From Orenia metallireducens (GTDB lineage: Bacteria; Bacillota; Halanaerobiia; Halobacteroidales; Halobacteroidaceae): a stretch of 64,000 bases of DNA. Below the pieces are notes generated by a model that saw only the letters and a list, made by a program, of their open reading frames with translations, searched no databases and was not told where the DNA came from. The translations under genes and the position numbers were made by a program. Positions 13,428 through 36,653 of the stretch are shown here, piece after piece (the first letter of the stretch is position 1; each line of letters starts with the position of its first letter). The stretch covers positions 294,589 through 358,588 of the forward strand of contig NZ_LWDV01000009.1 of assembly GCF_001693735.1 (NCBI RefSeq). The letters run 5' to 3'.

Positions 13428-13910
13428 ATGGATAAAGAAGAGACTAAAATAATTCAATGTAGTGGTAATAAGAGTGGTGGTTCTAGATGCACTAGAGAAA
13501 AGGAAATAGAGATAGATTTTGAAGGTAAGTGGTATTGCTAGCAGCACCAAAACAAGGCACAAAGTGTTACAGATATCGAAAATGAAGGATTGAGTCAAGA
13601 TCAACTTAAGGCTATAGACTTACTTATTTCAGGAGAGTTTACTAAGGCTGAAATAGCAAAAAAGTGTGACATTAGTAAAAGGCAGCTATATAGGTGGTTA
13701 GAGGAGGAAAATTTTAAATCAATTTATTATGAGAGATTAAATGAACTAAAGGATAAGTTTAACCCTAAGTTGCTTAATATGATTAATAATATTATGAAGT
13801 CGGCTCAACCAGAGGAGATAGACGATGAGCTGGATAAGATTGAGGCTTTGGAGAGGTTATTAGTTCTTAAGCGGGAGAAGAAGATTAGAGATTTCAGAAA
13901 TAACTTATGA
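13428..13910 (+). pseudogene. Phage terminase small subunit-like gene with in-frame TAG
   Basis: From ATG 13428 one reading frame continues to 13910, broken only by TAG at 13539-13541 (codon 38). The N-terminal part has a zinc-finger-like pattern (CSG, SRC, WYC*QH). The rest has a helix-turn-helix (TKAEIAKKCDISKRQLYRWLEE) typical of small terminase subunits. It lies immediately before and in frame with the terL remnant. The TAG could be a mutation or a readthrough codon; the damaged neighbours favour mutation. Confidence 0.65.
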
Positions 13911-14928
13911 GAGTTTTGTAAGACTATCTGTCCAGAGTTTTATCAAGAACATAGGTGGCATTGGAAGCTATTGTGTGGTACTTTGCAGAAGTTATATGAG
14001 GGAAATTTAGTTAATGAAGAGGGCAAAGTTTATACTAAGCTGGTGATGAATATGCCTTCTCGTCATGGGAAATCTAGAACCTTAATTAATTTCTGTAAAT
14101 GGGTATTGGGTAGGAAGAAGAGTAATAGGATTATCACCTGTAGCTATAATGATGCTGCCACTGATTTTTCTATATATACAAGGGATGGAATTATGGAGGT
14201 TAAGACCTATCCCCATGAGATTGTTTATGAGGATATCTTTCCTGAGAGTAAGATTAAGAAGGGAAATGCTATGCTCTGGTTTGTTATCAGAGAAGAGCTA
14301 TGAGAGTGTGAGAGTTAATATGGTGCCAGAGATATTCAGAGCAAATTATCATCAGGAGCCAATAGATCAGAAGGGTAAATTATATAAGTATTTTCAAACT
14401 TATGATAAATTACCTGAGAATTATGAGAGGATTATCTGTTATGTTGATACAGCTGATGAGGGTAATGATTATTTATGTGCTATTGTGGGAGTAGAGTATG
14501 AGGGAGAGGTTTATATAATTGATATTCTTTATACTAAGGGTGGAATGGAGGTTACAGAATCTCAGACTGCTGAGTTATTGGTAAGAAATAAGGTGAGTTA
14601 CTGTAAAATTGAGAGTAATAATGGTGGTCGTGGTTTTGCTAGAAATGTTGAAATGATATTATGGGAATATTACAGAAAAAGGAGTATTGATATTCAATGG
14701 TTTCATCAGAGTAAGAATAAGAAGGCGAGGATAATAGCGAATAGTAGCTTTGTGATAAATCACATTTACTTCTCTGAGGATTGGAGGTATAGATGGGCTA
14801 AGTATTATGAGTCAATGAATAGCTATCAGAAAGAGGGGAGAAATAGAAATGATGATGGACCAGATGCTACTACTGGATTAGCTGAGATGGTGAATGAAGG
14901 ATTTGAGTTGAGGATAGGGAGAGTGTAA
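13911..14928 (+). pseudogene. Phage terminase large subunit, internally deleted
   Basis: The N-terminal frame (13911-14303) begins in frame just after the small-subunit stop with CPEFYQEHRWHWKLL, then MPSRHGKSRT (Walker A) and SYNDAATDFS, and ends at FVIREEL*. The C-terminal frame (14281-14928, a different frame) resumes at RANYHQEP and covers the nuclease domain (YVDTADEGNDYL, ESNNGGRGFARN, DDGPDA). The ~150 residues with Walker B and the coupling motif are missing. The gene is therefore dead by deletion plus frameshift, and it lacks a clear start codon. Confidence 0.82.
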
Positions 14929-15194: not shown

Positions 15195-16004
15195 ATGGAG
15201 TTTACTGGGGGAAGTGCATTACATAATGGAGTTCGGTTTTCATCTACACATAAAACTGTTACTGTTACAATTAATGAAGATGATGAATTTAATACAAAAA
15301 TAGAAGATAATCTTGCTGTAAAGAAAAAAATACTTTTTAAAGGTGAAAGATTTATTAAGAAAATTCCTTTTATTAGAGGTTTTTATGATTTATTTAGATA
15401 TAATATTGAACTAATTGTAGTTTTTATAATTACTTTGTTTGTTGATTTAATTAATAATAATTATGATAAAATTAGTGGCTTAATTAGCAATGATCCAGAT
15501 GGTACAAAAAGTGAGATTGTTTTTGTGATTTTAAATATCTTTATTATTATAATTTTAATAATACTTTCGATAAAATCTATTAAAGAGATAATTAATCATT
15601 TAAAATTCTTAAAATTAACTCATGAATTTCACGGTGCTGAGCATAAGACAATTAATGCTTATTATGATCATAAAGACTTATCTATTGAGAAGGTTAGAAG
15701 AGCAAGCAGAGTAGCCTATGGATGCGGTACTAGTTTTTTAGCTTTTTGGATAACATGCTCTTTTTTATCGTTGTTCTTCTATAGAGGGTTTATGATTATA
15801 AATATAATCCTAGGTTATTCACTAGGCTATGAAATTTTTAAAATTAAGAAGGGGGAGAAAGTATTAGGTATATCTCTTTTTTATAAGTTATCTGCTTGGT
15901 TTCAGGATAAATTGTTTACAAGGGAACCTAGTGATAAGCAAATAGAGGTGGCTATATTTGCTTTTGAGACATTATTGGAAGAGGATAATAGGATAGATAA
16001 ATAA
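15195..16004 (+). CDS. DUF1385 membrane protein (YqhQ-like)
   Basis: A 269-residue membrane protein. It shows the DUF1385 pattern MEFTGGSALHNGVRF, a central membrane pair, FHGAEHKTINAYYDH, RRASRVAYGCGTSF and further hydrophobic segments. The HGAEHK and CGTSF motifs led to the family's annotation as a possible metal-dependent enzyme; no activity is established. AGGGAGATGG precedes the ATG. It is intact although both neighbours are phage pseudogenes, so it is either cargo or a separate arrival in the island. Confidence 0.85.
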   Translation: MEFTGGSALHNGVRFSSTHKTVTVTINEDDEFNTKIEDNLAVKKKILFKGERFIKKIPFIRGFYDLFRYNIELIVVFIITLFVDLINNNYDKISGLISNDPDGTKSEIVFVILNIFIIIILIILSIKSIKEIINHLKFLKLTHEFHGAEHKTINAYYDHKDLSIEKVRRASRVAYGCGTSFLAFWITCSFLSLFFYRGFMIINIILGYSLGYEIFKIKKGEKVLGISLFYKLSAWFQDKLFTREPSDKQIEVAIFAFETLLEEDNRIDK

Positions 16005-16403: not shown

Positions 16404-17560
16404 GTGATGATTATTAATATTTTTAAGAAGGTAGCAAAGGGTTTACAGGTTGAAGCTAATGCTAATCGTCCGAGATTAATGCCTAGTTATAGAATTGGTA
16501 AGCCACAGTTTAAGGATTGGAATACTGAAAGGGCTATTAATGAAGGGTTTAAGGTATCGACTTATGTTTATTCTTGTGTTTATCGGATTATGAAGGCTGT
16601 GGCTAGTATACCATTAAAGATTTATGAGGATGGGGAGTATAACCCAGAGCATCTTTTACAGGTGTTGTTGGATGACCCTCATCCTTTTTATAGTATGCAG
16701 GATATTATGGAGCGGATGGCTGCTCATTTGTATCTTGGGGGAATTCGATTATTCAAATAGTTAGGTTGGATAGTAAGGGAGGATTGCCAGTAGAGTTATT
16801 TCCTCTTAACCCCGATAAGGTCAGTCCTGTTCCTGACCAAGCGACTTTTATTAGTCATTATGAGTATAATATTGGGGATAGAATAGAGAGATTAGAAGCT
16901 AAGGATATAATTCATGATATGTTTACTGATCCTGCTAATCCTTATTGGGGGATGAGTCCATTACAGGTTGCTGCTATGATTGTAGATACTGATGTGGAAG
17001 CTATAAAATGGAATAAGGTTACGATGCAGAATCGAGCTATCACTGAGGGGGTCTTTGCTTTTAAGCATGATTTAACAGGTGCTCAATATAAGGAAGCTAA
17101 GGAGCATGTGAGGGAGCAGTATAGTGCTAAAGGGTGTGGACCGTGGGTTTTGGGGAATGAAGTGGAGTATATTCCGATGAGCTTAAGCCCTACTGAGATG
17201 GATTTTATCGAGTCAAGGAAGATGACTAGGGAGGATATTTGCTCTATCTTTCAGGTTCCTCTTCCAATGGTGGGAATTTATGATAAGGCTACTTTATCTA
17301 ATATTGAGACAGCGAGAAAGATATTCTGGTTAGATGGTATTATTTCTTATCTAAAGAATGTATTAGATACGTTAAATAAGAGCTTAGCTAAAGAGTTTGG
17401 TGATAATGTAGAGATTAAGGCTGATACCAGTATAGTTAAAGCGTTACAGGAGAATTTGAATGAGAAGGTAGATGCTGCTTATAAATTTAAACAGATGGGC
17501 TGGTCCTTAGAAGAGATTAACGAGAGATTGGATTTAGGATTTTCTAAGAGCAAGGGATAA
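16404..17560 (+). pseudogene. HK97-type phage portal protein, frameshifted
   Basis: Portal proteins form the dodecameric channel through which DNA is packaged. The first frame (16404-16760, 118 residues) carries STYVYSCVYRIMKAVASIPL and LLDDPHPFYS. It stops at LGGIRLFK*, whereas the adjacent frame reads NSIIQIVRLDSKGGLP and continues to 17560 with the family motifs DIIHDMF, GMSPLQVAAM and FQVPLPMVGIYDKATLSN. A single missing base near 16740 explains the break. The combined ~385 residues are slightly short, suggesting 3' loss as well. Confidence 0.88.
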
Positions 17561-17582: not shown

Positions 17583-17628
17583 GAATAGAGCGAGGGGGAT
17601 TAATTATATATTCCTTCTCGCTCTATTC
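17583..17628 (+). terminator. Hairpin at the end of the portal remnant
   Basis: GAATAGAGCGAGGG pairs with CCTTCTCGCTCTATTC. The loop and right arm overlap the last codons of the convergent gene at 17600-17803, so it may serve either strand. There is no long T run. Confidence 0.55.
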
Positions 17629-17803
17629 TCTGTTTAATTCGTAATAGTCTCCTTTTTTCAAAGAATAGTTGAATTCTCTCTAAGGAATCTGCTGGATATT
17701 GTCTGATTTCTCTGTCTAGCTCCTTCATCATAGAGTCGATTCTATTAATATAGTCTGATTCTGTGGGAGGAATATCTAATGATAATTGTTGATGTTTCTG
17801 CAT
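17600..17803 (-). CDS. Small helical protein, unknown
   Basis: A 67-residue, highly charged, probably all-helical protein (MMKELDREIRQY, then RRLLRIKQRIEREG). Its length and heptad-like spacing recall small phosphatase or anti-activator peptides, but no signature such as the Spo0E SxxxD motif is convincing. GGCGGTGG lies six bases before the ATG. It faces the phage genes and flanks the structured RNA. Confidence 0.5.
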   Translation of the reverse strand: MQKHQQLSLDIPPTESDYINRIDSMMKELDREIRQYPADSLERIQLFFEKRRLLRIKQRIEREGIYN

Positions 17804-17939
17804 AAGACCACCGCCTTAATTAAGTTATTTGTATACTACTAGTATGCCTATATTATGCTAAAGATATGCAGAGTTTCAATAAATAATGCAAAGTTATGAT
17901 AAAAAATATTAAGTATATAACATAAGTTATTCCCGAACA

Positions 17940-18540
17940 TATTATCCTCACAACCAGCAATTTCTTTTGATGCTGTAAGGAGAAAAGGTCAAGGAGGAAC
18001 GCAAGTATGAGTAGTCCTTGATGTTTTCGACTGCAAGCATATAATTAGCAGGATTACGAGATACTATCGTGCTATGAATATGGTTGGATTTTTAAGGTTT
18101 TATCTCCCGGAAGCAACCTGAGGACAGATGAGAAACTGATGTGTCATTTCTCATCGCCTCAAATCGTGTCTCTCAATCTTCCCTGTCCCCTATTTAATGC
18201 AACCGTAATTGGCGAAGTGATCTGCTGAGCCTGTTCAGGAAGGGAGTTAAAGGGATAGGGGGTTTGGGGGAAAGGGGATGAGGGAAACAATGGGGTTGCG
18301 AAAAGTGCAGAATAGTTGAGGTAGAAGTAGTAATTTTATTGTCTTTATAGCTAGCATGGTTTTTATGCTGGCTGGGGAGGGAGATGCTCTTAGCTGAGTG
18401 TAAGTCCTGGAAAGCAGGATAGATACGGGAGTTCTGTGTTAACAGGTTGTAGATATCTTGCTTGGAAGGACTGGAACGGGCGTGGTTTTTAGGGATTGTG
18501 ATAGCAGGTGATTGTGCTGCTATGACTATCCCTTATATTT
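17940..18540 (+). ncRNA. Large structured non-coding RNA (~0.6 kb)
   Basis: This stretch is markedly richer in G+C than its surroundings, has no protein-like frame and is full of complementary segments. Examples are TCAAGGA 17989-17995 with TCCTTGA 18015-18021; GATGAGAAA 18127-18135 with TTTCTCATC 18147-18155; TGAGG 18119 with CCTCA 18157; CCCCTAT 18187 with ATAGGGG 18255; GCAACC 18199 with GGTTGC 18294; and AGTCCT 18403 with AGGACT 18467. The CCCCTAT and GCAACC pairings cross, implying a pseudoknot or alternatives. It ends in a terminator-like hairpin (GGGAT..ATAGCAG / CTGCTAT..ATCCC, 18492-18532). Size and prophage location recall the ROOL and GOLLD giant RNAs, but class membership is not established. 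The strand is inferred from the 3' hairpin. Confidence 0.75.
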
Positions 18541-20877: not shown

Positions 20878-21008
20878 CAAATGATAGTTTTATTTTATCT
20901 TTAATATGAGGAGAAGATATTATTTAAATTTAAATAATACCACAAAACGAAATAAAAGATAGGGGTATATATTTTACTATATGAGATTTAGAAATAATTC
21001 TATATTAT

Positions 21009-21150
21009 GGCGAAGTGGTCTGTCGAGCCTGTTCAGGAGGAAGTTAAAAGAAAAGAGGGTTGGGGGAAAGAGAATGAAGGAAACAATGGGCTTTGCTTTT
21101 AGGAATTGTGATAGCAGGTGGTTGTGCTGCTATGACTATCCCTTTTTTTA
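21009..21150 (+). ncRNA. Internally deleted copy of the structured RNA
   Basis: Bases 21009-21093 match 18211-18300 (GGCGAAGTG, GAGCCTGTTCAGGA, GGGGGAAAG, GGAAACAATGGG). Bases 21094-21145 then match the 3' hairpin at 18489-18535, including ATAGCAGGTG and GTGCTGCTATGACTATCCC, here followed by seven T residues. The ~190 bases between these blocks and the 5' third are absent. It is a relic or minimal paralogue and shows that the 3' hairpin and the central block are separable units. Confidence 0.75.
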
Positions 21151-36385: not shown

Positions 36386-36461
36386 AATCTAAGTTACTTT
36401 AATCATTAGCTTAATTCACCAAAGATAGGGGCTGTTTAAATTTAAAATAAAATTTAATGGG

Positions 36462-36653
36462 GATATTGCGACAGTTTCAAATCTCACACCTCACCCTAAC
36501 CCTCTCCTTATCTAAGGAGAGGGAACAAATTCTTTCTTTTTGCTCTTGCTCCCCTTCTCCTAAGAGTAGGAGAAGGGGACGGGGGATGAGGTGTGGGGTT
36601 TTCTAACTATCAACTTTACACTATACATTGAGGTGAAAAAGTGTCGCAATATC
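36462..36653. repeat. Palindromic mobile-like element, complete
   Basis: It begins GATATTGCGACA (36462-36473) and ends TGTCGCAATATC (36642-36653), perfect 12-bp inverted repeats. The interior holds nested GC-rich inverted repeats (CCTCTCCTT / AAGGAGAGG; CCCCTTCTCCT / AGGAGAAGGGG; CACACCTCACCC facing GATGAGGTGTGG). No gene is inside. Related copies are at 32678, 47200 and 52432. The inner motif resembles CT-rich palindromes known from many bacteria, but the ends look specific. Confidence 0.8.

What the first reader, a model, noticed from the sequence alone, without database searches (positions are those of the whole stretch)
17940..18540. Large ornate non-coding RNA in a prophage remnant
About 600 bases, richer in G+C than the surroundings and without any frame, contain at least seven long-range or local helices, two of them crossing, and finish in a terminator-like hairpin. 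Size and prophage setting fit the class of giant phage RNAs (ROOL, GOLLD), but I cannot match a consensus; it may be a new class.
Basis: partly seen in the sequence, partly recalled or inferred. Interest (0 to 1): 0.88.

Follow-up and report, generated by a model that had tools for sequence, protein, structure and literature searches.

The report
New giant structured phage RNA
A stretch of DNA in a decayed bacterial virus encodes a large, intricately folded RNA that is not a gene for a protein, matches no catalogued RNA family, and recurs in related viruses of salt-loving bacteria, sometimes beside genes that fight other viruses.

Summary
Window 17935-18540 (+) is a G+C-rich, frameless stretch that folds better than shuffles. 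It matches none of 4227 Rfam families. Homologues occur in 8 of 61 genomes searched (7 of 8 of the window's family plus one of another family), and two viral contigs carry the core. Covariation is strong: in the core 18 of 46 pairs change on both sides with pairing kept; in the 3' domain 25 of 33. There are 56 G-U cells and no A-C cells, which points to RNA of the + strand.

The window copy is a damaged example: about 207 nt of the 5' domain are deleted, 76 nt are inserted, and the host prophage is broken (terminase fragment, split portal). The complete Orenia copy is about 750 nt. In Orenia/Halonatronum phages the RNA lies directly after the portal gene; in Natroniella between early genes and holin. 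Variable cargo follows, including restriction systems and a phosphorothioate defence island (strong defence matches in 4 of 13 copies).

Most likely it is a new class of large ornate phage RNA, comparable in kind to ROOL and GOLLD but a member of neither. Its biochemical function is inferred, not shown. Crossing helices were not confirmed; no transcript data were available.

The parts
13590..13910 (+). terminase small subunit-like gene of the prophage remnant
   Evidence: PHROGs terminase small subunit, E 1.5e-13
14149..14928 (+). terminase large subunit, C-terminal fragment (259 aa; 477 aa in viral contig L078)
   Evidence: Pfam Terminase-T7_RNaseH-like; PHROGs TerL; L078 ORF
15195..16004 (+). 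DUF1385 gene lying between terminase and portal, as in viral contig L078
   Evidence: Pfam DUF1385 E 9.6e-26; a similar ORF lies at the same place in L078 (by eye)
16404..16760 (+). portal protein, N-terminal piece, cut by a stop
   Evidence: Pfam/PHROGs portal; translation
16766..17560 (+). portal protein, C-terminal piece in another frame
   Evidence: Pfam portal E 4.3e-47
17583..17628 (.). inverted repeat between portal and the small ORF, possible two-way terminator
   Evidence: read from sequence; similar sequence in some relatives
17600..17803 (-). small divergent ORF (67 aa), conserved in Orenia/Halonatronum copies, decayed in G002a and G002b
   Evidence: tblastn 87-89% in L031/L032, 67% in L035; no Pfam or PHROGs family
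17935..18540 (+). the structured RNA (window copy, internally deleted)
   Evidence: homologues; fold z -5.5
17970..18041 (+). 5'-domain hairpin ATGCT...AGCAT
   Evidence: RNAalifold of 6 related copies; nearly invariant there, so weakly tested
18045..18057 (+). point where about 207 nt present in relatives are missing, at a 10-nt direct repeat
   Evidence: blastn pieces q1-135 = L031 3034-3168 and q126-380 = L031 3376-3631
18103..18301 (+). conserved core (model R1, 223.5 bits)
18113..18118 (+). P1 5' strand, pairs with 18294-18299
   Evidence: 3 of 6 pairs with both-side changes; coordinates
18119..18161 (+). P2 long hairpin
   Evidence: 9 of 17 pairs with changes on both sides
18163..18190 (+). 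P3 5' strand (pyrimidine-rich), pairs with 18258-18291
   Evidence: 6 of 13 pairs with both-side changes in the lower part; the upper 10 pairs are invariant or change on one side only
18211..18231 (+). P4 hairpin in the loop of P3
   Evidence: 7-bp versions GAUCGGC, GACCGGC, GGACGGC and 6-bp GGCUCG in relatives; weak in Orenia
18258..18291 (+). P3 3' strand (purine-rich)
18294..18299 (+). P1 3' strand
18300..18375 (+). 76-nt insert, shared only with copy G002a among the copies aligned
18393..18481 (+). 3' domain (nested helices 18393-18399/18476-18481, 18413-18421/18454-18462, 18433-18437/18442-18446)
18492..18532 (+). 3'-terminal hairpin
   Evidence: 11 of 14 pairs with both-side changes
21008..21150 (+). 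second, decayed copy (part of core plus terminal hairpin)
   Evidence: R2 60.3 bits; R1 24.8 bits

Best explanation
The sequence is a relic copy of a new class of large (about 750 nt in the complete Orenia copy), modular, protein-free structured RNA carried as an accessory gene (moron) by temperate phages of halophilic Halanaerobiales-type bacteria. Shown: the homologous family, the conserved secondary structure with compensatory changes, the sense strand, and the phage setting. Inferred: the RNA is made as a discrete transcript and acts in trans as a folded RNA, probably as a scaffold or cage in the manner proposed for ROOL and GOLLD. In that view it serves the prophage or its host during lysogeny or lysis, and it travels at the head of the phage's accessory (sometimes defence) gene region.
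For: Homologues in 8 of 61 genomes, with core R1 hits in 8 of 59 of the class, plus viral contigs L077 and L078. Covariation: core 18 of 46 pairs and 53 cells, shuffled mean 15.3, 0/500; 3' domain 25 of 33 pairs and 71 cells, shuffled mean 19.0, 0/500. Held-out copies score 137.9 (L077) and 121.8 bits (L078, cut) with R1, and 117.8 and 68 bits (G006:C29, G005 second copy) with R2. G-U 56 cells, A-C 0 of 969 cells with letters; alignments fold better in sense than antisense. Phage neighbours: portal, head protease, capsid, TerL; endolysin, DnaC/DnaD loaders, holin; TerS/TerL/portal remnants. No protein gene was seen to be shared by all copies. No Rfam match.
Against: No expression data. The promoter scan shows no excess (4 sites against 3.9 expected). 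No oligomerisation evidence. The window copy has lost part of its 5' domain. Core and 3' domain occur apart: G025 and L077 have the core but no R2 match, and G006:C29:35415 has the 3' domain without the core; that does not suit a single rigid particle. Two of 13 strong copies (L039, L045) show no phage gene in the stretch fetched. The following genes differ, but a cis role cannot be excluded.
Confidence: 0.5

Rival explanations
1. A cis-acting leader: a giant 5' untranslated or antitermination RNA that controls transcription of the accessory genes placed behind it.
For: In the loci read, the accessory genes mostly follow the RNA on its own strand, at about 0.05-1.1 kb. In Natroniella the RNA lies just after a late-activator-like gene and before cargo and holin. 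An inverted repeat after the portal might end late transcription.
Against: Downstream genes and gap lengths are not conserved; the RNA ends in a hairpin usually followed by T-rich sequence; in the window the next genes lie on the opposite strand; no reporter or RNA-seq data.
Confidence: 0.22
2. A cassette-boundary or recombination element: the 3' hairpin and tail are the exchanged unit by which phage cargo is swapped, and the RNA is the fixed head of such an array.
For: Hairpin copies without the core recur, starting sharply at the hairpin, between cargo genes of Natroniella prophages. A tail ending GTTGGCCCG is conserved beyond the hairpin in many of those copies and in a G005 copy. The G005 defence island is bracketed by two inverted copies.
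Against: Strand-specific compensatory change in core and 3' domain shows selection on RNA. No recombinase is tied to the hairpins. Shared terminators spread by ordinary recombination would look alike. Some hairpin copies lie beside genes that were not identified as phage.
Confidence: 0.13
3. A guide or ribozyme RNA of a mobile element (IS605/IscB omega RNA, group II intron) that has lost its protein.
For: RNA-only copies, several per genome, hairpin at the 3' end; a weak group II D1D4 hit lies on the other strand in L009.
Against: No group II, HEARO or other intron family matches the RNA; no TnpB, IscB or reverse transcriptase among the neighbours tested; the place beside the portal is conserved.
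Confidence: 0.05
4. A DNA-packaging RNA working with the portal, like the phi29 pRNA.
For: Directly after the portal gene in the 4 close portal loci and in L078.
Against: Natroniella, G005 and L077 copies lie in the early/lysis region; a copy lies beside a Rep3-type initiator; it is several times longer than pRNA (recalled, about 120-174 nt).
Confidence: 0.05

Closest known systems
ROOL RNA
   Same: Large ornate RNA of phages and prophages, no known protein partner or function (PMC12286853, passages read).
   Different: No Rfam match here; few copies near tRNAs; narrow host range as searched; modular, with core and 3' domain separable.
GOLLD RNA
   Same: Phage/prophage, many members over 800 nt, less conserved 5' region with conserved 3' region, function unknown (PMC12286853).
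   Different: No Rfam match; here the core can occur without the 3' domain; no tRNA beside most copies.
OLE RNA
   Same: About 600 nt, ornate, in Bacillota extremophiles (partly recalled).
   Different: Phage setting here; no Rfam match.
Phage-encoded abortive-infection RNA of the AbiF system
   Same: Phage-encoded RNA tied to a defence gene (PMC12373285, listing and abstract start only).
   Different: Here the neighbouring protein changes from copy to copy, so no dedicated partner.

Membership tests
ROOL | match to the Rfam covariance model | tested here: not met
   No ROOL match in the window or in 12 homologue loci, even at relaxed E-values
ROOL | RNA-only oligomeric cage | not testable with these tools
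   needs biochemistry or cryo-EM
ROOL | encoded in phage or prophage, often near tRNA islands | tested here: inconclusive
   Phage setting met in most copies; tRNAs found in 2 of 19 loci scanned
GOLLD | match to the Rfam covariance model | tested here: not met
GOLLD | expression rises during phage lysis | not testable with these tools
   no RNA-seq held
OLE | match to the Rfam covariance model | tested here: not met
large ornate phage RNA (the kind) | several hundred nt, no coding frame, covariation-supported elaborate structure, in phages | tested here: met
large ornate phage RNA (the kind) | discrete abundant transcript | not testable with these tools
   no expression data
group II intron / HEARO omega RNA | family model match and partner protein | tested here: not met
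   no model match over the RNA; no such protein among the neighbours tested
integron cassette array | attC-type sites with an integron integrase | tested here: inconclusive
   repeated hairpins between cargo genes; attC core motif not seen by eye (motif recalled); one phage-type integrase beside copy G002a

The most novel reading that the evidence does not exclude
The RNA is the fixed head of a phage cargo platform: a giant RNA and its 3' hairpin-tail unit mark and organise a swappable array of anti-phage defence genes in temperate phages, with the hairpin as exchange boundary and the RNA regulating or protecting the cargo. I know of no described RNA-headed cassette system of this sort (recalled; searches showed none).
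Probability: 0.13. Interest if true: 0.88.

Novelty: new variant of a known kind. Interest (0 to 1): 0.68.

Why it matters
Very few classes of giant ornate phage RNA are known and none has a settled function. A further class, unmatched by any Rfam model, gives an independent case to compare, in cultured bacteria with several natural variants (without the core, or without the 3' domain). Its repeated placement ahead of accessory regions, some with strong defence-gene matches, suggests a testable link between giant phage RNAs and phage-borne immunity.

Tried and rejected
Rfam at gathering and relaxed thresholds gave only chance-level hits over the RNA. blastn against 50,697 phage and 72,556 plasmid records: no match. 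Pattern hits L047 (viral), L051 and L055 (genomes) are chance matches inside unrelated sequence. The R1 hit at window 36413-36609 (22.9 bits) looks like an unrelated C-rich/G-rich inverted repeat. A search for the 3'-hairpin pattern in viral contigs gave nothing. R1 in 299 genomes of the phylum found only 2, both already known. RNAalifold on A4, which held truncated rows, lost the long helix, so A5 with complete cores was used. Rows left out of A5: L078 (cut), G000:C4, G002:C8 (two), G004:C4 and window 21008; left out of A3: window 21008, the G006:C29 copies, hairpin-only copies, L046, G002:C8 first copy, and G025/L077, which lack the domain. The structures were derived from the same alignments that were then counted; shuffles, slides, held-out hits and the sense/antisense comparison are the controls. 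Single-sequence folding energy does not tell the strands apart. An enrichment test of defence genes near the RNA was not run.

Full report
Observation. The stretch 17940-18540 has 43.3% G+C against 32.3% for the window (above 99.4% of equal tiles), and no ORF over 43 aa overlaps it. Its minimum free energy is -212.1 kcal/mol, z -5.5, with none of 20 shuffles as low; the opposite strand gives z -5.9, so only comparison can tell strand and reality. Rfam gives no match at gathering thresholds in the window and only chance-level hits at E up to 10 around the RNA; 12 homologue-bearing loci gave no credible match over the RNA either.

Relatives. DNA search of 61 genomes found matches in 8: 7 of the 8 genomes of the window's own family and one of another family in the class. 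The phage and plasmid collections gave nothing. The exact-pattern scan of the 84,980-genome collection gave 8 stretches, of which 6 are true and 2 are chance. IMG/VR gave two true viral contigs, L077 (35-kb record) and L078 (6 kb), and one chance hit. The core covariance model R1 finds 8 of 59 genomes of the class and 2 of 299 drawn from the phylum, both already known. The 3'-domain model R2 finds 7 of 59. So the family is narrow as far as searched.

Anatomy. In the complete Orenia copy G001a the RNA is about 750 nt (L031 3050-3795; z -7.4). A 5' domain (6 copies, 7 of 74 predicted pairs with both-side change) is followed by the core and the 3' domain. Core: P1 closes it, P2 is a long hairpin, P3 is a long pyrimidine/purine helix, and P4 is a hairpin in its loop. 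On 12 complete cores (A5), 98.9% of cells pair, 18 of 46 pairs have changes on both sides, and 53 cells do so against 15.3 in shuffles; 0 of 500 shuffles reach the observed value on four of five measures, 48 of 500 on the fifth, the number of pair types. The upper 10 pairs of P3 are invariant or vary on one side only, so they are untested by covariation. P4 is GAUCGGC/GCCGAUC in G005, GACCGGC/GCCGGUC in G025, GGACGGC/GCCGUCC in L077 and GGCUCG/CGAGCC in Natroniella, but is not clearly formed in several Orenia copies. 3' domain on 14 rows, three of them cut by contig ends: 95.0% of cells pair, 25 of 33 pairs with both-side change, 71 cells against 19.0 shuffled, 0 of 500 on all five measures. 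Sliding partners by 1-3 columns destroys the signal in both.

Controls for circularity. The structures were derived from these alignments. Copies not used in R1 score 137.9 bits (L077) and 121.8 bits (L078, cut off). Copies not used in R2 score 117.8 bits (G006:C29:35415) and 68 bits (G005:C1:2151161). Over both structures, 969 cells have letters on both sides: 56 are G-U and none A-C; shuffles give about 43 A-C cells (26 + 16). RNAalifold prefers the sense strand in both alignments (-21.4 against -15.7 and -52.8 against -47.0 kcal/mol; larger covariation terms). This supports selection on RNA of the + strand, with the caveat that the folding program itself allows G-U and not A-C.

State of the window copy. 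Relative to G001a it lacks about 207 nt at a 10-nt direct repeat and carries 76 nt (18300-18375) shared only with G002a. Upstream are a terminase small subunit-like gene, a TerL fragment, a DUF1385 gene and a portal split into two frames. The viral contig L078 shows the same order with uninterrupted ORFs of 477 aa (terminase) and 399 aa (portal) (assigned by eye from the translations). A second decayed copy lies at 21008-21150. The window copy is therefore probably a relic.

Setting. I count 13 copies whose core scores above 100 bits with R1 (L045 and L075 are one place): window, L031, L032, L033, L034, L035, L036, L037, L038, L039, L045, L077, L078. Phage genes were identified in the stretch held for 10 of the 13 (for L078 by its ORF translations); L038 carries a holin-like ORF by resemblance only; L039 and L045 show none. 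The portal gene precedes the RNA in window, L031, L032, L035 and L078: all four portals of 88% or more identity found, plus L078. Two weaker portal hits (a 72% fragment with stops on G001:C10, and a 35% hit in G057) have no RNA match. In L035 and L034 a head protease follows after cargo genes. In L036 and L037 the RNA lies between DnaC/DnaD-type early genes and endolysin or holin. Degenerate or divergent copies also lie beside a Rep3-type initiator (G002:C8) and upstream of a sulfate transporter (G000:C4).

Cargo. Genes behind the RNA differ from copy to copy. Strong defence matches (PADLOC): a type IV restriction enzyme in L033 (E 2.4e-89), an HaeIII-type restriction enzyme with methyltransferase in L039 (2.8e-51; 5.6e-109); PbeA (1.9e-256) in L036 with SspA, SspB and SspC in the same island (L140), and an AAA restriction protein in L077 (1.3e-46), beside a D12 methyltransferase. 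That is 4 of 13 strong copies. Others carry ankyrin, LRR, Ig-like, DUF6414, HATPase or unknown proteins. The window's own following genes (DICT, ECF transporter, B12-binding regulator) are not defence-like. No background rate was measured, so enrichment is unproven.

Modularity and the repeated hairpin. G025 and L077 have the core but no R2 match. G006:C29:35415 has the 3' domain with the core missing. The terminal hairpin alone, beginning sharply at its first base, recurs in or near the cargo regions of Natroniella (G006:C29, C20; G007:C41, C93). In many of those copies a tail ending GTTGGCCCG follows, also present behind the second G005 copy, so the hairpin need not be the RNA's end there. 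In G005 the defence island lies between two inverted copies. These may be shared terminators spread by recombination, or boundaries of exchange; I cannot decide.

Mechanism. The commitment is to a trans-acting, protein-free structural RNA carried as a phage accessory gene, at 0.5. Shown: family, structure, strand, phage setting, variable neighbours. Inferred: transcription as a discrete molecule, action in trans, scaffold or cage formation. The main rival is a cis leader of the accessory region (0.22).

Comparison with the known. The passages I read of PMC12286853 describe ROOL and GOLLD as phage RNAs of unknown function that form RNA-only cages, often near tRNA islands. The present RNA matches neither model, and tRNAs were found in only 2 of 19 loci scanned. 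It plausibly works like them; it is not a member of either. I found no paper describing it in the listings of searches of an open-access library that lacks most subscription journals.

Noticed in passing
window 36413-36609: C-rich/G-rich inverted repeat (CCTCACCCTAACCCTCTCC ... GGAGAAGGGG), probably a miniature mobile repeat; it gives a weak hit to the RNA model (22.9 bits).
   Followed up: partly
window 15195-16004; L078 2675-3265: A DUF1385 gene lies inside the phage head module between terminase and portal in the window remnant; a similar-looking ORF sits at the same place in a viral contig.
   Followed up: no
L109 12223-13330 (G006:C29, minus strand): A 3'-domain variant of the RNA lies shortly downstream of what looks like a CRISPR array with 37-nt repeats (by eye).
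   Followed up: no
L126 around 1200-1300 (G005:C1 near 2150.9 kb): A sequence that looks like a selenocysteine tRNA gene (by eye; ARAGORN did not call it) lies beside the second RNA copy of G005, a possible prophage attachment site.
   Followed up: no
L043 5562-7100 (G002:C8): A divergent RNA copy lies directly after a Rep3-type replication initiator on a 108-kb contig, perhaps a plasmid or phage-plasmid.
   Followed up: no
window 17836-17860: Palindrome around TACTAGTA in the divergent region between the small ORF and the RNA, kept in several relatives (by eye); operator-like.
   Followed up: no
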